Assembly: GCF_001280205.1 (NCBI RefSeq) | Contig: NZ_CP012573.1 | Coordinates: 1,612,001 to 1,676,000, forward strand | Source of the DNA: Clavibacter capsici | GTDB taxonomy: Bacteria > Actinomycetota > Actinomycetes > Actinomycetales > Microbacteriaceae | Length of the DNA: 64,000 nt | Reading direction: 5' to 3' | Part shown: positions 2,352 to 12,455 of the stretch, piece after piece | Layout: each line of letters begins with the position of its first letter | How positions within the stretch are numbered: position 1 is the first letter of the stretch | The notes under the pieces: generated by a model | Database searches by the model: none | What the model saw: only the letters and a program-made list of their open reading frames with translations | Told to the model about the DNA's origin: nothing | Made by a program: the position numbers and the translations under genes

Positions 2352-2370
2352 GTTGAGAACCGTTCTCAAC
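2352..2370. promoter_or_regulatory. Perfect 9-1-9 palindrome, putative Zur/Fur-family operator
   Basis: The site reads GTTGAGAAC-C-GTTCTCAAC, a perfect 9-bp inverted repeat around one base, lying 22 nt upstream of the peptide gene's ATG. The inner TGAGAAC-n-GTTCTCA has the layout of actinobacterial Zur boxes (TGANAAT-n-ATTNTCA type). From position it should control the peptide cluster, perhaps also the divergent small gene. That it is a Zur site is inference from motif shape and from the metallophore-type importer in the cluster. Confidence 0.6.
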
Positions 2371-2392
2371 AGCAGAGAGAGAGGATGCCGAG

Positions 2393-2581
2393 ATGATCGA
2401 CGTCTCCATCACCAGGATCGCCGGCGACGACGTGCTGAGCGCGCCGCAGGGACCGGGCACGAACGCCCTCGTCCACAACCCCTTCGCCGTCGAGGCGATC
2501 GCCGGCGACGACGTGCTCAGCGCGCCGCAGGGACCGGGCACGAACGCCCTCGTCCACAACCCCTTCGCTCTCCAGGACTAG
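2393..2581 (+). CDS. RiPP precursor-like peptide with two tandem repeats
   Basis: A 62-residue peptide made of two copies of a 24-residue unit (residues 9-32 and 36-59, period 27), each starting IAGDDVLSAPQG and ending NALVHNPFA. Only eight residues precede the first copy and three follow the last. There is no cysteine; Ser16/43 and Thr23/50 are the only repeat residues a cyclodehydratase could heterocyclise, and His28/55 is a possible metal ligand. A purine-rich SD (GAGAGAGAGG) ends 8 nt before the ATG. It sits first in a cluster with an E1-like/RRE protein and two YcaO proteins, so it is most likely the precursor of a modified peptide. The leader/core boundary is unclear, and the match to any known peptide class is not evident to me. 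Confidence 0.8.
   Translation: MIDVSITRIAGDDVLSAPQGPGTNALVHNPFAVEAIAGDDVLSAPQGPGTNALVHNPFALQD
2416..2568 (+). repeat. 72-bp direct repeat inside the peptide gene
   Basis: Two 72-bp copies (2416-2487 and 2497-2568) start 81 bp apart and differ at one base (a synonymous G/C in a Leu codon). Such identity, including third positions, points to recent duplication or continuing gene conversion. Confidence 0.95.
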
Positions 2582-2591
2582 GAGAGGGAAG

Positions 2592-2621
2592 CCGGCCGGC
2601 GCGCGACGGCGCGCCGGCCGG
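2592..2621 (+). terminator. Strong hairpin between peptide gene and modification genes (attenuator-like)
   Basis: A perfect 13-bp stem (2592-2604 with 2609-2621, all G/C) closes on a 4-nt loop just after the peptide stop codon. There is no T-tract, so it may act as a partial terminator or as an RNA-stabilising 3' end that lets the peptide be made in excess over its enzymes, as is common in RiPP operons. Function is inferred. Confidence 0.6.
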
Positions 2622-2680
2622 GACGACGCCCGTCCGCATCCGCCGCCCGGCCCGCCGCCGCACACCGAACGTGAGACCCG

Positions 2681-3544
2681 ATGCTCCGCCTCGCCCCGCA
2701 CCACCGCCTCTACCGCGTCGACGCCGACGAGTGGCGGCACGTCACCCCCGCCCTCGACTTCCACCGCGTGAGCGGACCCGACGCCCTCGTGGCGGACGTG
2801 GCCGCGCGCCTCTCGGGCGACGGCGTCCCGGATCCCGACGACGTCGGGGCGCCTGCTGCGGAGGATCCCGGCGCGCCCCTCGTGCGCCTGCTCCGGGACG
2901 GCGGCGCCCTCTCGGCCTCCCTCGACGACGTGCCGCGGCCGCTGCCCGGCACCGGCGACGTGGCGATCCAGGGCACCGGACCCGTCGCCGACGCGCTCGT
3001 CGCGCTGCTCGGCGACCGCGCCGCCCGCATCTCCCCGGACGACGACGTCCCGGCGACCGCATGCGCCCTCGTCTCCCTCGCCCCCGAGCAGCCCGACGCC
3101 GCCTGGTCCGCGCTCGGCCCCGAGCTCGCGCGCACGGGGCTGCCCTGGCACCGCGTGCACCAGGAGGGCGAGCTCCTCGTCGTCGGGCCGCTCCAGGCCC
3201 CGGGCGGCCCGGGCGCCGTGACCTACGCCGACTACCGCGGCCGCCGCCGCGCCGCCCACCGCGTGGTCGAGGAGCTCGACCGGCTCTGGGCCGAGGCGGA
3301 CGCGCGCGCCGCCGCGGGCGTCGCGCCGCCGTGGGCCTGGCACGGGGTGGGCACGGGCGCCGCGGCCATCGCCGCGGGCGTCGTGCTCGACGAGCTCGCC
3401 GCGCACCTGTCGTCCGACGGCGCGGCCGGGCCCGGCATCCGGTACGAGCACACCATCGCGCTCGCGACCGGGCTGCTGGAGCGCCACCCCGTGCTGCCGC
3501 TGCCCGTGGACCTCGCCGACCTGCCCGTCGCAGGCGACCGGTGA
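2681..3544 (+). CDS. TOMM-type E1-like partner protein with predicted RRE (leader-peptide binding)
   Basis: This 287-residue protein resembles the ThiF/E1-like partner of azoline-forming YcaO enzymes. The N-terminus (LAPHHRLYRVDADEWRHVTP) looks like the winged RiPP recognition element that binds the precursor leader. The middle (residues about 90-190) is a reduced E1-like fold with GPVADALVALL, and the segment HRVHQEGELLVVGPL is typical of this family. Cysteines that bind structural zinc in many relatives are missing after GPL (the text reads PGGPGAVTYADYRGRRR). Its expected job is to present the peptide to YcaO. The last 4 nt overlap the GTG of the next gene. Confidence 0.72.
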   Translation: MLRLAPHHRLYRVDADEWRHVTPALDFHRVSGPDALVADVAARLSGDGVPDPDDVGAPAAEDPGAPLVRLLRDGGALSASLDDVPRPLPGTGDVAIQGTGPVADALVALLGDRAARISPDDDVPATACALVSLAPEQPDAAWSALGPELARTGLPWHRVHQEGELLVVGPLQAPGGPGAVTYADYRGRRRAAHRVVEELDRLWAEADARAAAGVAPPWAWHGVGTGAAAIAAGVVLDELAAHLSSDGAAGPGIRYEHTIALATGLLERHPVLPLPVDLADLPVAGDR

Positions 3545-5190
3545 TCGGCGCTCCGGACTTCGCGGTGCCGCTCCGCGCGTCCGACGGGACCGTGCTCGTG
3601 CACGACGCGCACGTGCCCGCCGACGCCGGGACGGACGGCGTCCCGCGCGTGCCGTGCGTCGTCACGCGCACGCCGTACGGCCGCTCGCGCCACCTCGAGG
3701 AGGGGCGCGCCTGGCGCGCGCGCGGCCTCGCGTACGTGGTGCAGGACGTCCGCGGCCGCCACGACTCCGGCGGGACGTGGACGCCGTACGTCGGGGAGCG
3801 CGCCGACGGCGCCGCGCTCGTCGACTGGATCACGGACCAGCCGTGGAGCGACGGCCGCGTGGTGGCGTACGGCGGCTCCTACTCCGGCTTCACCGCGTGG
3901 GCGATGGCGGTCGAGCGCCCCGCCGCGGTCCGCGCCGTCGTCTCGCTCGGGCCGTCCATGTCGCTCGCGCGCACCAAGTTCGGCGGGGGCGGGATCCTCC
4001 GGCTCGCCGAGCACGCGTCCTGGTGGCTCGAGCGCGGCGACGCCCGCACGAGCCGCGACGGCCTCGCCGCGCTCGTCTTCCGGGAGCGGCCGGGGATCCT
4101 CCGCCACCTCCCCGTCGTGGACCTGCCCCGCGCGCTCGGCGCGCACCTGCCGTCGTGGCGCCGGATCGTGGAGGACGGGCCGGACGCGGTGACGGGGGAG
4201 GAGATCACCGCCGACGACCTCGCCGCCCTCCCCGCCGCGACGCTGCACGTGGGCGGCTGGCACGACCTGCTGCTGCCCGAGACGCTCGAGCAGCACCGGG
4301 CGGCGGGATCCGGCGCGCCCGGCACGCCCGCGCACCTCCTGGTCGGCCCGTGGGAGCACGACCTCGCGGGCAGCGCCTCCGGCCGGATCGGCGACCTCGA
4401 CCACGGCGACGACGCCGTGATCCCGTGGGGGCGGATGCTCGTCGACTGGATCCGCGACGCGCTCGACGGGTCCCTCCCGCCCCGGCGCGCCGAGGTGCAC
4501 GTCCGCGGATCCGGCTGGGAGCGGCACGACGACTGGCCTCCGCCGCACGTGCCCACGCGCGTGGAGTGGACCGCGGGCGGCGAGGTCGCCTTCGTCCACG
4601 ATCCCCGGGATCCGCGCCCGTCGCGCCACCCGGGCGTCGACCGACGCGCGCTCGCGTCGCGGCCGGACGCCGTGCGGGCCACCTCCGTGCCGCTCGCCGC
4701 GCCGCTCCGGCTGACGGGCGACGTCGCCGTCGAGCTGACGAGCGCATCCGCCGCCCCGGGCGTCGACTGGGTCGCGAGGCTCCTCGCCCGGGACGCCGAC
4801 GGCTCCGAGCAGGAGCTCGCCGTGGGCGAGACGACCGTCGCCGGCCCGCACGACGCGCTCCGGGTCGCCGTGCCGCTCGGGCCCGTCGCGGCCGTCCTCC
4901 CCGCGGGCACGACGCTCGTGCTGGAGCTCGCGGGCGCCGACGTGCCGCGCCTCGCGCGGAACCTCGGCGGGCCGCCCGCGGAGCGGTGCACCTCGACGCG
5001 CCAGGAGCCCGTGCGGCAGGGAGTGCGCGTGGACGCGGCCACGCCGCTCGCGCTCGTGCTGCCGATCGCCGACGGCGCGGTGCCGACGCCCGACGCGGTC
5101 CGGATCGCCGGCGCGTCCGAGGCCCCCGTGCCGCACGCTCCGACGACGCCGGGCGTCGCGTCGGACCCGTCGACGGAGGCGGCATCGTGA
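3541..5190 (+). CDS. CocE/NonD-family hydrolase (X-Pro dipeptidyl-peptidase-like)
   Basis: A 549-residue serine hydrolase of the cocaine esterase/X-Pro dipeptidyl-peptidase family. Visible are RTPYGR (Tyr about 46, oxyanion side), QDVRGRHDSGG (68-78), the nucleophile motif GGSYSG with Ser113, GGWHD (catalytic Asp region), GPWEHD (catalytic His) and a C-terminal jelly-roll domain. No signal peptide is seen. Start GTG overlaps the upstream stop (GTGA). In this operon it may remove the leader or trim the Pro-containing repeats (APQGPG, HNPFA), or act on the finished product; that role is inference. Confidence 0.82.
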   Translation: MIGAPDFAVPLRASDGTVLVHDAHVPADAGTDGVPRVPCVVTRTPYGRSRHLEEGRAWRARGLAYVVQDVRGRHDSGGTWTPYVGERADGAALVDWITDQPWSDGRVVAYGGSYSGFTAWAMAVERPAAVRAVVSLGPSMSLARTKFGGGGILRLAEHASWWLERGDARTSRDGLAALVFRERPGILRHLPVVDLPRALGAHLPSWRRIVEDGPDAVTGEEITADDLAALPAATLHVGGWHDLLLPETLEQHRAAGSGAPGTPAHLLVGPWEHDLAGSASGRIGDLDHGDDAVIPWGRMLVDWIRDALDGSLPPRRAEVHVRGSGWERHDDWPPPHVPTRVEWTAGGEVAFVHDPRDPRPSRHPGVDRRALASRPDAVRATSVPLAAPLRLTGDVAVELTSASAAPGVDWVARLLARDADGSEQELAVGETTVAGPHDALRVAVPLGPVAAVLPAGTTLVLELAGADVPRLARNLGGPPAERCTSTRQEPVRQGVRVDAATPLALVLPIADGAVPTPDAVRIAGASEAPVPHAPTTPGVASDPSTEAAS

Positions 5191-6562
5191 GCGCCTCCGA
5201 CCTCGTCGACGCGCGCACCGGCCTCATCACCGCGCTCGCGCGCCAGCCCGCCGATCCCCGGCTGCCCTTCGCGTGGGTCGGCCACGGCGCCACGGTCTCC
5301 CGCGCCGACCGCTTCGCGCCCTGGCGCGCGGACGGCTTCGGCTTCGGCGCGTCGTCGGGCGATCCCGTGCCCGCGCGCCTGGCCGCGTGCGGGGAGGCCG
5401 TCGAGCGGTACTGCGGCAACGCGGTGCCGGAGCGCCTCGTCCGCGGATCCCACGCCTCGCTCACCGCGGGCGGCGCACGCGCGGTGGATCCCGAGGACCT
5501 CGCCCTGTACTCCGCCGCCCAGCACGCCGCGCCGGGCTTCCCCTTCCGCCCCTTCACGCGGCGCGACGAGGTGCTCTGGGCGCCCGGCGTCGACCTGCAC
5601 GACGGCGGCCCGTGCTCGTCCCCGCCTCCCTCGCGTGGCTCGACTTCGTGCACGGATCCCGCGCCGGCGAGGTGCCGCGCCACTCGCTCGCCTACTCGGG
5701 CATCGCGGCGGGATCCGACCGGCGCATGGCCGTCGGCAACGCGCTCGAGGAGCTGCGGGAGCGCGACGCCGCGGCGATCTGGTGGGCGAGCGGCGCCTCC
5801 ACGCGCGCGCTCGACGACGGCGGCCGGATCACCGGCGCGCTGGGCTGGGCGGAGGACGACGCGACGCCGGACGTCCGCGTGCGCCTCCTGGAGATCCCGT
5901 CGGAGTCGCCCGCGCCGGTGGTCGCCGCCTTCCTCGAGGAGGAGCACGAGGACGGATCCCGCATGGTCGCGTTCGGCAGCGCCTGCCGGTCGACGCCCGA
6001 GCGCGCCGCGACCAAGGCCCTCGTGGAGGCGCTCGGCCTGCTGCAGCTCACCCGGCAGCTCGTGGATCCGGCGAGCGAGGTGTGGCGGGCCGTCCGCGCC
6101 GGCGGGATCGAGGAGCACGTCTTCCTGCCGTACCGCGCCGACCGGCGCTACCTCGACGACGTCGGCCCCGGCTACGCGCGCCTCACCGACCTGCCGCCCG
6201 TGGCGCAGCTGCACCTCGACCCGCGGATGAACGGCGCGCACCTCGACCGGCTGCGGCCCGCGGCGTCCGTGCCGCTCGACGCGCTCCCGCGGATCGACGC
6301 CGCCGACCCGCTCGACGCGCACCTGGAGGCGCTCGCCCGCGAGGGGCTCCGCGCGGTCGCCGTCGACCTCACGACGCCCGACGTGCGGCTCGCCGGCCTC
6401 GAGGTGGTCCGCGTCGTCGTGCCGGGGCTCGTGGGCAACGGGCCGCCGGCGTACCCGCTCCGCGGATCCGACCGCTACCGGGAGGTGCCGCGCCGCCTCG
6501 GCCTGGACCGGATCCCCGCGAGCGCCGTCGACCTCGTCCCCGACCCGATCCCGCTCGCATGA
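5187..6562 (+). pseudogene. YcaO-domain protein, frameshifted (putative cyclodehydratase 1)
   Basis: Two reading frames together encode a complete YcaO protein of about 458 residues. Residues up to about 141 (GTG at 5187, SD GGAGG at 5175) are in one frame and contain GEAVERYCGN with Mg/ATP-binding glutamates; from 5612 the next frame continues with VLVPASLAWLDF and the segment ALEELRERDAAAIWW. Aligned with the paralogue downstream, one base is missing at 5607-5611. The C-terminus (PDPIP) keeps the PxPxP signature of azoline-forming YcaOs. Unshifted translation would run in the wrong frame to 6230. It could be a true mutation, a sequencing error or, less likely, programmed frameshifting. Confidence 0.75.
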
Positions 6563-6570
6563 GAGGCCCG

Positions 6571-7887
6571 ATGAGTCCCGCCCCCACCCCCGCCGACCTG
6601 GTGGACGCGCGCACCGGCGTCGTCCGCCGCATCGAGCCGCGCGCGACGCCCGCGCACTTCCCGCCCGCCTTCGCGCTCGCGCACGCCGTGCTCGCCGACT
6701 CGTCCGCGCACTGCCCGTGGGCGTCCGACGCGTCCGGCGCGGGCCACGCCTTCGCGGATCCGGACGCCGTGCTCGGCGCCGCCGTCGGCGAGGCGGTCGA
6801 GCGGTACTGCGGCAACCTCGTGCCCGCGGGCCTCGTGCGCGCCTCGGCCCGCGAGCTGCGCGCCGTCGGGCGGGCCGTGCTGGATCCGGCCGACCTCGCG
6901 CTCTACTCCGCCGCCCAGCACGCGACCGGACGCCTGCCCGTCGCGCCCCTCGACCAGGACGCCGTCGTGGACTGGACGGAGGCCGCGCGCGTCGGCGCCG
7001 ACGGGCACCTGCTCGTCCCCGCGTCGCTCGTCTGGGTGTCGCACGCGCTCCTCGTGCCGCCCGCGGTGCACCCGATCATGCAGGCCGGGCTCGCCACCGG
7101 GAGGTCCCGGGAGGAGGCGCTCTGGGGCGGCCTCGGCGAGGTGCTCGAGCGCGAGGCGATGACCCGCGCGTGGACGGACGGCGAGGGGTTCGTCGAGCTG
7201 GACGTCCCGCGGGCTCTGCACGACCTCGCCCGCGGGCCCGCCGACGCGCTCACCTGCCGCTGGCTGCTGCTCCCGAGCGAGGTCCCGATGCCCGTCGTCG
7301 GCGCGCTCGTGTCCGACGCCCGCACCGGGTACCTCACCCTCGGCATGGCGAGCGGCGGCCGGCCGATGCGCGCCGCCCGCAAGGCGCTGGGGGAGGCGCT
7401 GCAGCTGCAGCTCTTCCAGGCGGACCTCGACGATCCGGCCGGCCCCTACATGGCCGCGGCCCGCCGCCCCGGGAGCCCGCTGCGGCCCTGGCGCGCCGAC
7501 CGCGCCTACGGCCGGTCGTATAGGCCCGACCTCTCCGACGTCGTCGACTACGGCTGCCACCTGCAGCTGCACCTCGACCCCGCCGTGCAGCGCGCCTTCC
7601 TCGACGAGCTGGAGCGGTCGATCACCGGCCGCCGGGCGCTGGCCGACGTCGACGACCGCTGGGACGGGCCGGCGCGCCTGCCGGGGCTCGTCGACGCGCT
7701 GCGGTCCCGGGGCCGGGAGGTGCTCGCGGTCGACGTGACCCTGCCGGAGGTCCGACGCGCCGGGCTGCACGTGACGCGCGTGATCGTGCCCGGCCTCCGC
7801 TCGAACGCGCCGCACGCGCTGCCCTTCCTCGGGGGGCCGGATCCCGCGCCTCCCCGGCCCGCGCGGCCGGTGCCGCTCCCGCACTGA
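6571..7887 (+). CDS. YcaO-domain cyclodehydratase-like protein 2
   Basis: An intact 438-residue YcaO protein, expected to use ATP to phosphorylate a peptide backbone amide and close a heterocycle on Ser/Thr/Cys. Visible: GEAVERYCGN (73-82), a QAGLATG nucleotide-binding turn (171-177), GLGEVLEREAM (187-197) and a C-terminal PVPLP, the proline-rich tail typical of azoline-forming members. It is a clear paralogue of the preceding gene (shared DLVDARTG, GEAVERYCGN and DLALYSAAQHA). ATG 6571 has an SD-like GAGAGG just upstream; ATG 6559, overlapping the previous stop, is the alternative. With the neighbouring copy broken, this may be the only active YcaO here. Confidence 0.82.
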   Translation: MSPAPTPADLVDARTGVVRRIEPRATPAHFPPAFALAHAVLADSSAHCPWASDASGAGHAFADPDAVLGAAVGEAVERYCGNLVPAGLVRASARELRAVGRAVLDPADLALYSAAQHATGRLPVAPLDQDAVVDWTEAARVGADGHLLVPASLVWVSHALLVPPAVHPIMQAGLATGRSREEALWGGLGEVLEREAMTRAWTDGEGFVELDVPRALHDLARGPADALTCRWLLLPSEVPMPVVGALVSDARTGYLTLGMASGGRPMRAARKALGEALQLQLFQADLDDPAGPYMAAARRPGSPLRPWRADRAYGRSYRPDLSDVVDYGCHLQLHLDPAVQRAFLDELERSITGRRALADVDDRWDGPARLPGLVDALRSRGREVLAVDVTLPEVRRAGLHVTRVIVPGLRSNAPHALPFLGGPDPAPPRPARPVPLPH

Positions 7888-8107
7888 CCGCCGCCCGCGT
7901 CGCCGGGCACCGCCGACCGTTCCGCCACCCGACCGAGAGCCGCATGGAACCCACCGCCACGACCCCGTCCCCGCCCGCTGCGCCGACGCCCGCGCCCGCG
8001 TCGCCGCTCCTGCCCGACCGGGGCCCGCACGCCCGGACCGCCGCCCCGTCCCACGCGCGCACGTCCCGTCCGCGCCGGGCCGCGCGCGCCTCGCCCGGCG
8101 GATCCTC

Positions 8108-9124
8108 GTGCCGGCCCTCGTCCTCGGCGCCCCGCTCGTCCTGGCGATCGCGATGGGCGTCGGCGCGGTGTCCGTGTCGCCGCTGCACGTCGCGCAGGTC
8201 GTGCTGCACCACGCGCTCGGCACGGACGCGCTGGGCGTCGGCGCCGACGCGATCGACGACCAGATCGTGTGGGAGTACCGCGCGCCGCGCGTGCTCCTCG
8301 CGCTCGTCACGGGGGCGGCGCTCGCCCTCGCGGGCACCGTGCTCCAGACCCTCATCCGCAACCCGCTCGCGGATCCGTTCGTGCTCGGCATCGCCTCGGG
8401 GGCCTCGCTCGGCGCGGTGGCGGCGCTCGTCGTCGGCGCGTCCGCGGCGGGGATCCTCGCGACCCTCGGCGTGACCGGGGCCGCGTTCGCGGGCGCCATC
8501 GGCACCCTCGCGCTCGTGCTGGCGCTCGGGCGGCGCCGCGGGCGCGTGGATCCGGCCCGGCTCGTCCTCGTCGGCGTCTCGATCTCCTCGCTGCTGCAGG
8601 CGCTCACCAGCTGGCTGCAGCTGCAGGCCTCGCCCGACCAGATCGCGGGCGTGCTGTTCTGGCTCCTCGGCAGCGTGTCGGGCGCAACGTGGGGCTCGCT
8701 CGCGCTGCCCGCCACGGCGCTCGCGATCGGCCTCGTGGGGCTCCTCGCGGGCGGCCGGACGCTCGACGCGCTCCTCCTCGGCGACGACCGCGCGGCATCC
8801 CTCGGCGTCGACCTCTCCCGCTCGCGCACGATCCTGTTCGCCGTCTCGGCGCTCCTGACGGCCGCGGCGGTGTCCGTCGCGGGCGGCGTCGGCTTCGTCG
8901 GGCTCATCGCGCCGCATCTGGTGCGGCTGGTGGTCGGCCCCGCGCACCGGCGGCTCCTGCCGCTCGCCGCGCTCGTCGGCGGGCTGTTCCTCGTCCTCGC
9001 CGACCTCGCCGGCCGCACGCTGACGGCGCCGCGCGAGCTGCCGCTCTCGATCGTGACCGCCCTCGTGGGCGTCCCCGTGTTCCTCGCGGTCCTGCTCCGC
9101 GCCGACGGCGGGCGGACCCGGTGA
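8108..9124 (+). CDS. FecCD/BtuC-family ABC importer permease
   Basis: A 338-residue integral membrane protein with about ten hydrophobic segments. Family signatures are YRAPRVLLALVTGAALALAG, RNPLADPFVLGIASGASLGA and GFVGLIAPHLVR. Members import metal-siderophore, haem or cobalamin complexes. The GTG start leaves only two residues before the first membrane span; just upstream, in frame, the codons read GRARLARRIL without a start codon, while a coding-like stretch from ATG 7944 lies in another frame, so the true N-terminus may be longer with a 1-nt frameshift near 8060-8100. It overlaps the ATPase gene by 4 nt. Confidence 0.88.
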   Translation: MPALVLGAPLVLAIAMGVGAVSVSPLHVAQVVLHHALGTDALGVGADAIDDQIVWEYRAPRVLLALVTGAALALAGTVLQTLIRNPLADPFVLGIASGASLGAVAALVVGASAAGILATLGVTGAAFAGAIGTLALVLALGRRRGRVDPARLVLVGVSISSLLQALTSWLQLQASPDQIAGVLFWLLGSVSGATWGSLALPATALAIGLVGLLAGGRTLDALLLGDDRAASLGVDLSRSRTILFAVSALLTAAAVSVAGGVGFVGLIAPHLVRLVVGPAHRRLLPLAALVGGLFLVLADLAGRTLTAPRELPLSIVTALVGVPVFLAVLLRADGGRTR

Positions 9125-9939
9125 GGCTCTCCATCGAGGACGTCGCCGTCCGCATCGGCCGCGCGACCCCCGTGTCCGGGGCCACGCTCGAGGCGCGCGA
9201 CGGCGAGCTCGTCGGGCTCGTCGGTCCGAACGGCAGCGGCAAGTCCACGCTCCTCAAGGCCCTCTACCGCGCCCTCCCCGTCGCGCGCGGCACGGTCCTC
9301 CTCGGCGACCGGGAGCTCCGCGGCATGCGCCCGCGCGACTCGGCCCGCATCGTCGCCGCGCTCACGCAGGACCACGGCGACGACGGCGCCCTCGACGTGC
9401 GCGCCGTCGTCGCGACGGGCCTCACGCCGCACAAGGGCGCGCTCGACCGCGACACCGACGACGACCGCGCGCTCGTCGACGCGTGCCTCGCGCGCGCCGG
9501 GGCGACGGCCCTCGCCGACCGCTCCGTCCGCTCCCTGTCCGGCGGCGAGCGCCAGCGGGTGATGCTCGCGGCGGCCCTCGCGCAGCGCCCGCGGATCCTC
9601 GTGCTCGACGAGCCCACGAACCACCTCGACGTGGCCACGCAGCTGGAGCTCCTCGACCTCGTGCGCGGGCTCGGCATCACGGTGGTCGTGGCCCTGCACG
9701 ACCTCAACCTCGCCGCCGCGTACTGCGACCGGATCCACGTCGTGCACGGCGGCCGCATCGTCGCGGGCGGCACCCCGGACGAGGTGCTGCGGCCCGGGAT
9801 CCTGCGCGACGTCTTCGGCGTCGACGTGCACCTGGGCGAGCACCCCGCCACGGGCCGTCGCCACCTGTTCTTCAGCACGCCCACCGCGCGCCCCGCACCC
9901 ACGCCCACCACGATCCCCACCCCGGACGGACACCCATGA
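9121..9939 (+). CDS. ABC importer ATPase, FecE/BtuD-like
   Basis: A 272-residue ATPase that should power the adjacent FecCD-type permease from the cytosolic side. Walker A GPNGSGKST (35-43), signature LSGGERQ (139-145), Walker B ILVLDEP (159-165) and H-loop ALHD (191-194) are all intact. GTG start overlaps the permease stop; its own stop overlaps the ATG of the binding protein, indicating tight translational coupling. Confidence 0.92.
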   Translation: MRLSIEDVAVRIGRATPVSGATLEARDGELVGLVGPNGSGKSTLLKALYRALPVARGTVLLGDRELRGMRPRDSARIVAALTQDHGDDGALDVRAVVATGLTPHKGALDRDTDDDRALVDACLARAGATALADRSVRSLSGGERQRVMLAAALAQRPRILVLDEPTNHLDVATQLELLDLVRGLGITVVVALHDLNLAAAYCDRIHVVHGGRIVAGGTPDEVLRPGILRDVFGVDVHLGEHPATGRRHLFFSTPTARPAPTPTTIPTPDGHP

Positions 9940-10949
9940 CCTCCCGCACCCGCACCTCCTCCCGCCGCGCGACCCGCCGCCTCCTCGGCCTTTCCGCGGG
10001 AGCGACCGCCGCCGCCCTCCTCCTCGCGGGCTGCGCCGCCGGATCCGCCGAGGACGCCGCCGCACCGGCCGCGGCCGCCGCGTCGGGCCCCGTGTCCGTC
10101 GACTCGTGCGACCGGACGCTGTCCTTCCCGACCGGACCGCAGCGCATCGTCTCGCTCTGGCCCGCCGTCACGGAGATGCTGCTGGAGCTGGGCGCGGGCG
10201 ACCGGCTCGTCGGCCAGGCCTTCACCGACCAGTCGCCGCCGCTCGACCGCTACCGCGACGCCTACGACCGCGTGCCCGTGCTCGCGACCGGGGCCGTCGA
10301 CCGCGAGACGCTCCTCGCGGCGCACCCCGACCTCATCGTCGCCGACGGCGAGTACCACTTCGACGGCACCGAGCTGCCGACGATCGACGACCTGGCCGCC
10401 CTCGGGATCCGCGTCTACGTCATCAGCTCGTTCTGCCACGGCCAGGTCACGACCGGGCACGTCGACGACGCAGCGACCGACCTCGCCTCGCTCGGCACGC
10501 TCCTCGGCGCCGGAGACGCGGCCGACCGCGCGATCGCCGACCAGCGGTCCCGGCTCGCCGCCGTGGACGCGCACGTCGCGGGCGCGGATCCGGTCGACCT
10601 CGCGGTGCTCCAGATCTTCGACGGCTCCGTCTACGCCGACGCCCGCGGCCTCTACAGCGACGTGGTCGCCCGGGCCGGCGGCCGGAACGCGTACGAGGAC
10701 GCCCTGCCCGCCGACCAGTACTACGCCGAGGTCAGCGTGGAGGACGTCGCCCGACGGGATCCCGCCACGATCGTGTACCTGTACTCGACGGACGCCGAGC
10801 GCGACAGCGTGCGCGCGGACCTCGAGGCGCGGCTCCCGGGCGTGCGGGCGGTCCGCGACGGCCGTCTGCTCGCCCTGCCGTCCACGGACTTCATCGGATC
10901 CCGGGCCGTCGACGGCGTCGTCGCCCTCGACGCGCTCCTCCATGGCTGA
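9936..10949 (+). CDS. ABC importer substrate-binding lipoprotein (BtuF/FhuD-like)
   Basis: A 337-residue surface lipoprotein: positively charged N-terminus, hydrophobic stretch and lipobox LLAGC with Cys33 as the lipid anchor, then a low-complexity Ala linker and a TroA/BtuF-type domain beginning PQRIVSLWPAVTEMLLELGAGDRLVG. It should capture the substrate and deliver it to the permease. His/Cys-rich stretches EYHFDG and SSFCHGQVTTGHVDD could contact a metal or its complex, but this is a guess. As part of the peptide operon the likely cargo is the metal-loaded peptide product or a related metal complex. Confidence 0.88.
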   Translation: MTSRTRTSSRRATRRLLGLSAGATAAALLLAGCAAGSAEDAAAPAAAAASGPVSVDSCDRTLSFPTGPQRIVSLWPAVTEMLLELGAGDRLVGQAFTDQSPPLDRYRDAYDRVPVLATGAVDRETLLAAHPDLIVADGEYHFDGTELPTIDDLAALGIRVYVISSFCHGQVTTGHVDDAATDLASLGTLLGAGDAADRAIADQRSRLAAVDAHVAGADPVDLAVLQIFDGSVYADARGLYSDVVARAGGRNAYEDALPADQYYAEVSVEDVARRDPATIVYLYSTDAERDSVRADLEARLPGVRAVRDGRLLALPSTDFIGSRAVDGVVALDALLHG

Positions 10950-12219
10950 CGCGACCGACGCGACGACCACGCCCGGGGCGGCGCGCGCCTTCGACCTGTA
11001 CGTCGTCTCCCGCGGCGTCTCCTGGGCGGGCAACGCGCTCACCGCGGTCGCGCTCCCGGTGCTCGTCTTCACGACCACCGGGGACGCCGCCCTGCTCGGC
11101 CTCGTCGCGATGATGGAGGCGCTGCCGTACCTGCTGCTCGCGCTCCCGGTCGGCGCGCTCGTCGACGGGTGGGACGCCCGGCGGACGATGCTCGTCACGA
11201 CCTGGCTGAGCGCCGCGGCGACCGCCTCGGTCCCCGTCGCCGCGCTGGCCGGCACCCCGCCTCCGGCGCTCCTCGTCGGCGTCGCCGCGGCGGTGTCGTC
11301 GCTCTTCGTCTTCTTCGACGCCGCGAGCTTCTCCGCCGTGCCCGCCCTGGTGGGCCGCGAGCGAGTGGGCGCGGCGACCACGCGCATGACGACCGTCTAC
11401 ACCGTGATCGGCATCGCCGGGCCGCTCGCGGGCGCCGCCGCGGTCTCGGGCCTCGGGGCGCCGGCGGTGCTCGCCCTCGACGCGGCGAGCTACGCGGTCG
11501 CGGCCCTGCTCCTCGTGCGCGTGCGCTGGACGCCCGTGCCCCGGCCGGTCGCACCGACCCGGCGGCGCATCGGCCGCGAGGTCGTCGACGGGCTGGCGCA
11601 CATCCGCCGCACCCCGCTCGTCCGCGACCTCACGCTCGTCGGCGCGGGCAGCAGCCTGACCGGGGGAGCGGTGACGGGCACGCTCGTCGTGATGGTCGCG
11701 CGCGGCCTCGGGGAGCCGGCCGACGGACCCGCCCTCGGGATCCTCGCCGCGGCCGCGGCCTGCGGCACCCTCGTCGCGTCCCGGGCGCTCGGTCCCGTGC
11801 AGCGGCGCGTGGGCGTCGGGGCCATCGCGATCGGCGGCCTGGCCCTGCAGGCGGCGCTCACGGCCGCGTGGGCGGCCGTCGGGTCGCTCGTCGTGGCGGT
11901 CGTGGTGCTCGCGGCGTGGCAGGCGGCCGCATCCACCGTGTCGATCTCCGGCATCGTCGTCCGGCAGACCGTGACGCCGGCCCACCTCCAGGGCCGCGTC
12001 AACACGACGGCGCGCATGATCGCGTGGGGCGGGCAGCCCGTCGGGGCGGGTCTCGGCGGCCTCCTCGCCGCCTCGCTCGGGATCCGGGCGGCGATCCTCG
12101 TCGCGGGCGTCGGCGTGCTCGCGAGCCTCGTCGGCGCGGCCGCGTCGGGCCTCCGCCGGGCGCCGCGCCTGGCGGAGCTGACCGTCCCGGACGCGGAGGA
12201 CGCGCCCGTCGCGGGGTAG
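10942..12219 (+). CDS. MFS exporter
   Basis: A 425-residue major facilitator with about twelve hydrophobic segments. VGALVDGWDARRTMLV matches the loop 2-3 consensus of MFS drug and siderophore exporters (enterobactin-exporter-like). It overlaps the lipoprotein gene by 8 nt and is the last gene of the cluster, so it is the best candidate for exporting the modified peptide or giving self-protection. The substrate is inferred from context only. Confidence 0.85.
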   Translation: MADATDATTTPGAARAFDLYVVSRGVSWAGNALTAVALPVLVFTTTGDAALLGLVAMMEALPYLLLALPVGALVDGWDARRTMLVTTWLSAAATASVPVAALAGTPPPALLVGVAAAVSSLFVFFDAASFSAVPALVGRERVGAATTRMTTVYTVIGIAGPLAGAAAVSGLGAPAVLALDAASYAVAALLLVRVRWTPVPRPVAPTRRRIGREVVDGLAHIRRTPLVRDLTLVGAGSSLTGGAVTGTLVVMVARGLGEPADGPALGILAAAAACGTLVASRALGPVQRRVGVGAIAIGGLALQAALTAAWAAVGSLVVAVVVLAAWQAAASTVSISGIVVRQTVTPAHLQGRVNTTARMIAWGGQPVGAGLGGLLAASLGIRAAILVAGVGVLASLVGAAASGLRRAPRLAELTVPDAEDAPVAG

Positions 12220-12272
12220 GTGATCGGAGGCGCCCGGATTCTTTGCTACGCTTTCCAGGTTGCTCCACGTGA

Positions 12273-12345
12273 TCCTCGATAGCTCAATTGGCAGAGCAGC
12301 CGGCTGTTAACCGGCAGGTTGTTGGTTCGAGTCCAACTCGGGGAG
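12273..12345 (+). tRNA. tRNA-Asn (GTT)
   Basis: Folds into a standard cloverleaf: acceptor TCCTCGA with TCGGGGA, D-arm with AGCTCAATTGGCAGAGC, anticodon stem GCCGG/CCGGC around loop CTGTTAA (anticodon GTT), T-loop TTCGAGT. CCA is not encoded. Confidence 0.95.
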
Positions 12346-12348
12346 CGA

Positions 12349-12380
12349 AGGCCTCGCGGCTCCACCCGCGGGGCCTTTTC
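12349..12380 (+). terminator. Rho-independent terminator after tRNA-Asn
   Basis: Stem GGCCTCGCGG with CCGCGGGGCC (one G-U pair) followed by TTTT. Confidence 0.85.
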
Positions 12381-12455
12381 CTTTGGCCCGTGCGCCCGTC
12401 ACGGGCGCACGACGGCGGCAGGTCGGCGCACGTCGCCCGCCCGCCGCCGACACGC

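What the first reader, a model, noticed from the sequence alone, without database searches (positions are those of the whole stretch)
2352..12219. YcaO RiPP cluster with metallophore-type importer under a Zur-like operator
Seen: a duplicated short peptide, an E1-like/RRE protein, a CocE/NonD hydrolase, two azoline-type YcaOs, FecCD-type permease, ATPase and binding lipoprotein, and an MFS exporter, nearly all overlapping by 4-8 nt, behind a perfect palindrome of Zur-box shape. Known: YcaO plus E1-like partner make azoline peptides; FecCD-type systems import metal chelates. Inference: a ribosomally made, cysteine-free, oxazoline-type peptide that acts as a zinc (or other metal) chelator, exported by the MFS protein and recovered by the ABC importer. 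No flavin dehydrogenase is present, so rings would stay at azoline level. I do not recognise this combination as a characterised system.
Basis: partly seen in the sequence, partly recalled or inferred. Interest (0 to 1): 0.92.

Follow-up and report, generated by a model that had tools for sequence, protein, structure and literature searches.

The report
Zinc-regulated streptamidine-type peptide gene cluster
This is a gene cluster of an already described family that makes small modified peptides of unknown purpose, and it lies under a zinc-starvation switch that turns out to be shared by most of the relatives examined, which suggests that these peptides serve bacteria short of zinc.

Summary
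Window 2352-12219 carries a perfect 9-1-9 palindrome, a two-repeat precursor and E1-like, CocE, YcaO, YcaO, FecCD, ATPase, binding-protein and MFS genes. The first YcaO frame is broken in this assembly and in one frame in 6 of 6 relatives. It is not an unknown combination: the precursor matches NCBIfam NF040715 (streptamidine-related), and Russell et al. 2021 already list two-YcaO clusters of this family in Clavibacter. This genome is Clavibacter capsici-like.

New here is the switch. The same palindrome precedes ZnuA, ABC-3 permease, L36 and CobW-type genes of this genome. A matrix trained without any ami site scores 17 or more just upstream of the precursor in 20 of 25 genomes outside the genus (6 of 7 families), and at the precursor or in the importer region in 74 of 74 named loci (73 Streptomyces). 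Unrelated background: 0 of 592 windows. Zinc-type genes adjoin several clusters, and the gene I take for amiX is predicted to fold most like the zinc protein AztD.

Most likely: a Zur-repressed peptide system for zinc scarcity. That the peptide carries zinc is inferred; published tests of streptamidine found no metal binding. My literature searches found no Zur link.

The parts
2352..2370 (.). Zur-type palindrome GTTGAGAAC-C-GTTCTCAAC, 22 bp before the precursor start codon
   Evidence: same core at zinc-type genes of this genome; a box scoring 22.7-27.9 at this place in 7 of 7 congeneric clusters
2393..2581 (+). precursor peptide (AmiA-like, motif B), 62 aa, two repeats
   Evidence: NF040715 121.5 bits, cut-off 45; 97-100% identical in six congeners while long aligned DNA stretches of the cluster are 82-87% alike
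2416..2576 (+). two 80-nt repeats (2416-2495 and 2497-2576), each with one core followed by NALVHNPFA
2592..2621 (.). 13-bp perfect hairpin between precursor and AmiB genes (possible attenuator)
   Evidence: inverted repeat I6; function inferred, relatives not checked
2681..3544 (+). AmiB-like E1-like/leader-binding protein
   Evidence: TIGR03882 E 1.5e-6, below cut-off; hhalign 99.5% to ORFs in the AmiB position of named clusters
3541..5190 (+). AmiC-like CocE/NonD hydrolase
   Evidence: TIGR00976 226.7 bits; Peptidase_S15 E 2.7e-40
5187..6562 (+). first YcaO (AmiD-like), frame broken between about 5590 and 5630
   Evidence: pieces hit PF02624/TIGR03604 apart; one frame in 6 of 6 relatives
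6559..7887 (+). second YcaO (AmiD-like), Pro-rich C terminus
   Evidence: PF02624 148.8 bits; TIGR03604 204.2 bits, cut-off 219.25
8108..9124 (+). FecCD-type permease (AmiF-like); the true start may lie upstream
   Evidence: PF01032 311 bits; L034 has an in-frame start 43 codons upstream
9121..9939 (+). ABC ATPase (AmiF-like)
9936..10949 (+). FecB-type binding lipoprotein (AmiF-like)
   Evidence: PF01497 86.3 bits; 10 PDB relatives at E <= 0.001, those with telling names are hydroxamate-, iron-, haem- and B12-binding proteins
10942..12219 (+). MFS exporter
   Evidence: PF07690, TIGR00900; 49% identical to an MFS gene after the YcaO in L080 and L088
12273..12346 (+). tRNA-Asn bordering the inserted block
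   Evidence: in 11 of 11 genus genomes without the cluster the flanks meet here

Best explanation
A motif-B, two-YcaO member of the streptamidine (ami) RiPP family that belongs to the Zur regulon. With zinc plentiful, Zur sits on the palindrome just before the precursor gene and keeps the operon off. In zinc scarcity the two-core precursor is made, modified by the E1-like protein with the YcaO pair (by analogy to streptamidine, an N-terminal amidine after leader removal by the CocE hydrolase) and exported by the MFS protein. Its metal-loaded or free form is recovered by the FecBCD-type importer. Shown by computation: family, operator, its sharing with zinc-type genes, its conservation in relatives. 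Inferred: repression by Zur, the chemistry in this genus, export and re-import, and that the peptide carries zinc (I give that last step about 0.5; the confidence below is for membership, Zur control and a role in zinc scarcity).
Against: Published tests: streptamidine bound none of seven metal ions by LC-MS, a CAS iron test was negative, and a delta-amiD strain had no phenotype in metal starvation (PMC8442711). The motif-B core, about APQGPGT, offers no histidine or cysteine ligand. One YcaO frame is broken in this assembly, so this strain may make nothing. Precursor-upstream scores fell below 17 in 5 of 25 genomes (G247 16.5, G398 16.2, G144 13.2, G112 11.1, G311 10.8), though G398 and G144 have a box at or near the importer start; the third G137 copy, L087, has none. 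In the ami loci themselves the background is not zero: other 210-bp windows reach 17 in 20 of 2404 (27 non-genus loci) and 41 of 5735 (74 named loci, importer region excluded); some precede importer or CobW genes, others are unexplained. The L096 ZnuA-family protein could be a manganese protein.
Confidence: 0.78

Rival explanations
1. The peptide is made under zinc starvation by way of Zur but is not a zinc carrier: it is a signal or a competition compound, and the FecBCD-type importer is its receptor or a self-uptake route.
For: No metal binding and no starvation phenotype were found for streptamidine (PMC8442711); motif-B cores seen here lack histidine and cysteine at the equivalent place except the APQDPTTH type of L090-L092, which ends in histidine; deletion of amiF1-F4 abolished production, which fits a feedback role.
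Against: No antibacterial or antifungal activity was found either; importer homologues were seen in 26 of 27 non-genus loci (the 27th, L098, is cut off by its contig end), and several neighbours are zinc-type genes.
Confidence: 0.3
2. In this strain the cluster is decaying: the broken first YcaO leaves it without product.
For: Frame change inside YcaO1, one frame in 6 of 6 relatives; the permease beginning also looks out of frame compared with L034; 11 of 18 genus genomes lack the cluster.
Against: The precursor, operator and the other genes are open and conserved; a one-off assembly error would look the same; the second YcaO is whole.
Confidence: 0.35
3. The importer carries an unrelated cofactor (best NCBIfam names are F420-0 transporter parts) and only happens to share the operon.
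For: Best matches of the three importer proteins are TIGR03869/03873/03868.
Against: All three lie far below their cut-offs (291.1 of 437.35, 279.5 of 372.4, 104.5 of 392.4 bits); FecBCDE genes belong to the major subset of the family and were needed for production in the S. albidoflavus cluster.
Confidence: 0.08
4. The palindrome is the site of another Fur-family regulator (iron or peroxide) rather than Zur.
For: Fur-family boxes resemble one another (recalled); a second FUR-domain gene exists in this genome.
Against: Four of the nine genome-wide places precede zinc-type genes; sites at ZnuA and zinc-free L36 predict the box in other families; L36 genes with zinc cysteines have it in 0 of 25.
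Confidence: 0.05

Closest known systems
Streptamidine (ami) RiPP family, motif-B two-YcaO subset (Russell et al. 2021, PMC8442711)
   Same: Precursor family (NF040715), AmiB, AmiC, YcaO, FecBCD-type importer; the paper names Clavibacter among the two-YcaO clusters
   Different: Compared with the S. albidoflavus cluster: no AmiE dehydrogenase, two YcaOs, MFS instead of two ABC exporters, core without His/Ser; Zur control is not mentioned in that paper (term 'Zur' 0 times)
Zur-controlled small-molecule systems such as coelibactin of Streptomyces coelicolor (listed in PMC6103462)
   Same: Biosynthetic genes in the Zur regulon together with zinc uptake genes
   Different: Ribosomal peptide route, not nonribosomal (recalled); no zinc binding shown
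AztD, Zur-regulated zinc-binding beta-propeller (PMC6689063)
   Different: No sequence match; 12-14% identity; no signal peptide seen by eye in the AmiX candidate; no such gene in the Clavibacter cluster itself, though a homologue lies elsewhere in that genome (L013)
Klebsazolicin and bottromycin (amidine RiPPs, named in PMC8442711)
   Same: YcaO-made amidines
   Different: Other precursors and clusters; no zinc link known to me (recalled)

Membership tests
Streptamidine (ami) family | precursor of the family with conserved ALV | tested here: met
   NF040715 121.5 bits, cut-off 45; NALVHNPF in both repeats
Streptamidine (ami) family | YcaO, hydrolase and FecBCDE-type importer in the cluster; two YcaOs in the motif-B subset | tested here: met
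   one YcaO frame is broken
Streptamidine (ami) family | AmiB (RRE plus E1-like) | tested here: met
   hhalign 99.5%, E 8.2e-23, to ORFs picked by rule in the AmiB position of 74 named loci; TIGR03882 below cut-off; RRE itself not tested
Streptamidine (ami) family | N-terminal amidine product | not testable with these tools
   needs mass spectrometry or NMR
Zur regulon | operator of the Zur consensus before the first gene | tested here: met
Zur regulon | the same operator at zinc genes of the same genome, and a Zur gene | tested here: met
   (the name Zur for L260:1342-1788 rests on PF01475 and its place after znuB)
Zur regulon | zinc-dependent repression | not testable with these tools
   needs transcripts, EMSA
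Metallophore (zincophore) system | product binds the metal | not testable with these tools
   published negative for streptamidine
Metallophore (zincophore) system | metal-responsive control plus chelate-type importer | tested here: met
   operator and importer family only
AztD (for the AmiX candidate) | beta-propeller fold | tested here: met
   AlphaFold pLDDT 92.8; AztD first in both searches
AztD (for the AmiX candidate) | sequence kinship and zinc ligands of sites 1 and 2 | tested here: inconclusive
   no sequence match; ligand geometry not examined

The most novel reading that the evidence does not exclude
The streptamidine family is a widespread, ribosomally made zinc-acquisition system of actinobacteria under Zur: peptide, importer and an AztD-like protein (AmiX) hand zinc on. 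The streptamidine so far isolated, from a pathway whose dehydrogenase is needed yet leaves no trace in it, would then be a shunt or breakdown product rather than the working zinc carrier, which would explain the negative binding tests.
Probability: 0.35. Interest if true: 0.88.

Novelty: new member of a known kind. Interest (0 to 1): 0.66.

Why it matters
More than 230 such clusters were described in 2021 with no known role. A widely conserved Zur-type box, zinc-type neighbours and an AztD-like fold point to zinc starvation and give a cheap, decisive test in a laboratory Streptomyces. If the product proves to carry zinc, it would be a ribosomal route to a zincophore.

Tried and rejected

Literature on a Zur link of this family: 'streptamidine' 12 papers, of which I read only PMC8442711 (parts 1-3 of 5 of its main section, plus a term search); Zur+YcaO 4, Zur+RiPP+zinc 12, zincophore+RiPP 10, YcaO and five zinc terms with at least two present 354 papers, 25 listed, none of those 25 holding YcaO, AztD+Streptomyces 1. 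For all of these except PMC8442711 only listings with abstract starts were seen. Of PMC5472717, PMC6103462, PMC6689063 and PMC2770081 I saw passages. Open-licence library only.

Caveats on counts: the matrix sites were picked by the pattern TGANAANNNTTNTCA with up to 1 mismatch at ZnuA-family genes (13 of 30 loci had one) and zinc-free L36 (3 of 5), plus 5 own-genome sites; near-duplicates were left out by hand, 20 used. One training site (L36 of G250) lies 3.6 kb from an ami precursor, and one (L013) precedes a homologue of the AmiX candidate, not a proven zinc gene. Of 80 loci, 6 were dropped because no precursor lay in the held stretch. Those loci are nearly all Streptomyces and not independent. 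The 0-of-592 background comes from the rest of the window and from L36 loci; inside the ami loci other windows reach the threshold in 20 of 2404 and 41 of 5735.
Full report
WHAT IS THERE. The window lies at C1:1612001-1676000 of a 3.24-Mb, three-contig genome. A 3015-base piece of its third contig is 99.9-100% identical to plasmids of three Clavibacter capsici records. The block 2352-12219 reads: palindrome GTTGAGAAC-C-GTTCTCAAC, a 62-aa precursor with two near-identical repeats, an E1-like protein, a CocE/NonD hydrolase, two YcaOs, a FecCD permease, ATPase, FecB-type lipoprotein and an MFS exporter, all on one strand, with 4-8-nt overlaps except after the precursor and before the permease. 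The first YcaO changes frame between about 5590 and 5630. In all six congeneric clusters (L031-L036) its two halves share one frame, so the break is peculiar to this genome or to its assembly. Two relatives have other breaks (AmiC in L034; AmiC and YcaO2 in L035).

WHAT KIND IT IS. The precursor matches NF040715, 'streptamidine-related RiPP repeat protein', at 121.5 bits against a cut-off of 45. Russell et al. 2021 (PMC8442711; I read parts 1-3 of 5 of the main section) describe this family of more than 230 clusters. The major subset has a precursor, AmiB, hydrolase AmiC, YcaO AmiD, dehydrogenase AmiE, a FecBCDE-type importer amiF1-F4 and two ABC transporters. [quoted passage not shown] So the cluster is a known kind. 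The one characterised product, streptamidine (HLSATH minus water), has a six-membered amidine. Aligned on NALV, the core here is about APQGPGT, without histidine and without the serine thought to help ring formation. By profile comparison the window's AmiB is homologous to the ORFs in the AmiB position of 74 named loci (hhalign 99.5%).

THE OPERATOR LOOKS LIKE A ZUR BOX. I searched the whole genome for TGANAACNNTTNTCA with up to one mismatch: 8 forward matches against 1 for the reversed-letter control, 9 places on either strand. Four of the other places precede zinc-type genes: a zinc-free L36 back to back with a CobW_C gene (L007), an ABC-3 permease back to back with an ABC ATPase (L008), ZnuA (L011) and a second CobW_C gene (L012). 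The ZnuA gene is followed by an ATPase, an ABC-3-type permease and a Fur-family gene, with L28- and L33-like ORFs beyond (the permease, L28 and L33 names there are mine from the ORF sequences). The rest: a secreted propeller gene (L013); one identical core between a TetR gene and a protease-like gene (L009); and two weaker matches not followed (L014, L015). The published actinobacterial consensus is taaTGaNAANNNTTNtCANta (PMC5472717, passages only). Within the genus all 7 clusters keep a box scoring 22.7-27.9 at the same place; in four it is a perfect palindrome over 17 bp whose outer letters differ between species but match on both arms, in three (L033, L035, L036) one or two positions do not match.

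IT IS SHARED ACROSS THE FAMILY. NF040714 (streptamidine) was found in 18 of 394 genomes of the class (9 of 138 genera). NF040715 was found in 8 of 394, this genome included, in 7 of the 18 genus genomes and in 0 of 42 other relatives. I took 27 loci from the 25 non-genus genomes. A matrix trained on 20 sites at ZnuA-family genes, zinc-free L36 and own-genome places, none of them ami sites, was scored on them. The 210-bp stretch ending just inside the precursor hit was the best of its locus in 24 of 34 loci, the 7 genus loci included. At a threshold of 17 it was positive in 20 of 25 genomes, in 6 of 7 families; unrelated background windows reached it in 0 of 592. The five below are G247 (16.5), G398 (16.2, but 25.7 in the importer region), G144 (13.2, but 19.2 at the importer start), G112 (11.1) and G311 (10.8); locus L087 has none. 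Zinc-binding L36 genes of the same genomes served as a negative control: 0 of 25 have the pattern within 300 bp upstream. In 80 loci from genome contigs (79 named Streptomyces, 1 Microtetraspora), 74 hold the precursor. There the score is >=17 at amiA in 59, in the 3-kb importer region in 68, and at either in 74 of 74, among them S. albidoflavus NRRL B-1271 (23.2 and 25.0). Elsewhere in these loci the threshold is also reached, though rarely: 20 of 2404 windows in the 27 non-genus loci (several at importer starts or by CobW-type genes), 41 of 5735 in the 74 named loci outside the importer region, and 0 of 516 in the 7 genus loci. I did not explain all of these.

MOBILITY. In the 11 genus genomes without the cluster the two flanks lie next to each other and have no box (scores under 14). 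The tRNA-Asn was found in the window; the 169-base piece that holds it is inverted in 10 of those 11 genomes and not in G003. Operator and genes come and go as one block.

HOW IT MOST LIKELY WORKS. Zur represses the operon in zinc sufficiency. In scarcity a small modified peptide is made, exported and recovered by a chelate-type importer. The last step, that it carries zinc, is inferred. Against it stand the published lack of metal binding and of a starvation phenotype. For it stand the switch, the importer and the neighbours. A fair alternative is a peptide made in response to zinc starvation for signalling or competition. No source in my literature searches reports the Zur link (and 0 occurrences of 'Zur' in PMC8442711).

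SCORES. The cluster itself is a known kind; the likely zinc control of the family is the new part and makes its open question testable. Interest 0.66.

Noticed in passing
window 5590-5630: Frame break inside the first YcaO gene; intact copies exist in 6 of 6 congeneric clusters. Error or real mutation not settled.
   Followed up: partly
window 7944-8108: A start with a Pro/Ala-rich beginning like that of the L034 permease lies in another frame than the permease, so the permease N terminus may be affected by a second frame change.
   Followed up: partly
window 2592-2621: Perfect 13-bp hairpin between the precursor and the AmiB gene, possibly setting the precursor-to-enzyme ratio.
   Followed up: no
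G000:C1:2422914-2423951, 2433094-2434098, 2862555-2863532 (L001-L003): Three further YcaO genes elsewhere in this genome, without Zur-type boxes in the stretches held.
   Followed up: partly
L009 about 1501-1515 (G000:C1:397201): The identical operator core lies between a TetR gene and a protease-like gene (name by eye), which would be an unexpected Zur target.
   Followed up: partly
L087, L097, L098 (G137): One genome holds three copies of a motif-A cluster; one copy has no box.
   Followed up: no
L089 (G433): A precursor with a stop codon in its core that still keeps a strong box (27.6).
   Followed up: no
L032 (G007): Precursor with three instead of two repeats.
   Followed up: no
window 12220-12388: Piece with tRNA-Asn is inverted between the window and 10 of 11 genus genomes without the cluster.
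   Followed up: partly
named loci L159-L238, about -7 to -6 kb and +11 to +13 kb of the precursor: Further box-like sites recur at similar distances in several Streptomyces loci (41 windows in 36 loci), genes behind them not identified.
   Followed up: no
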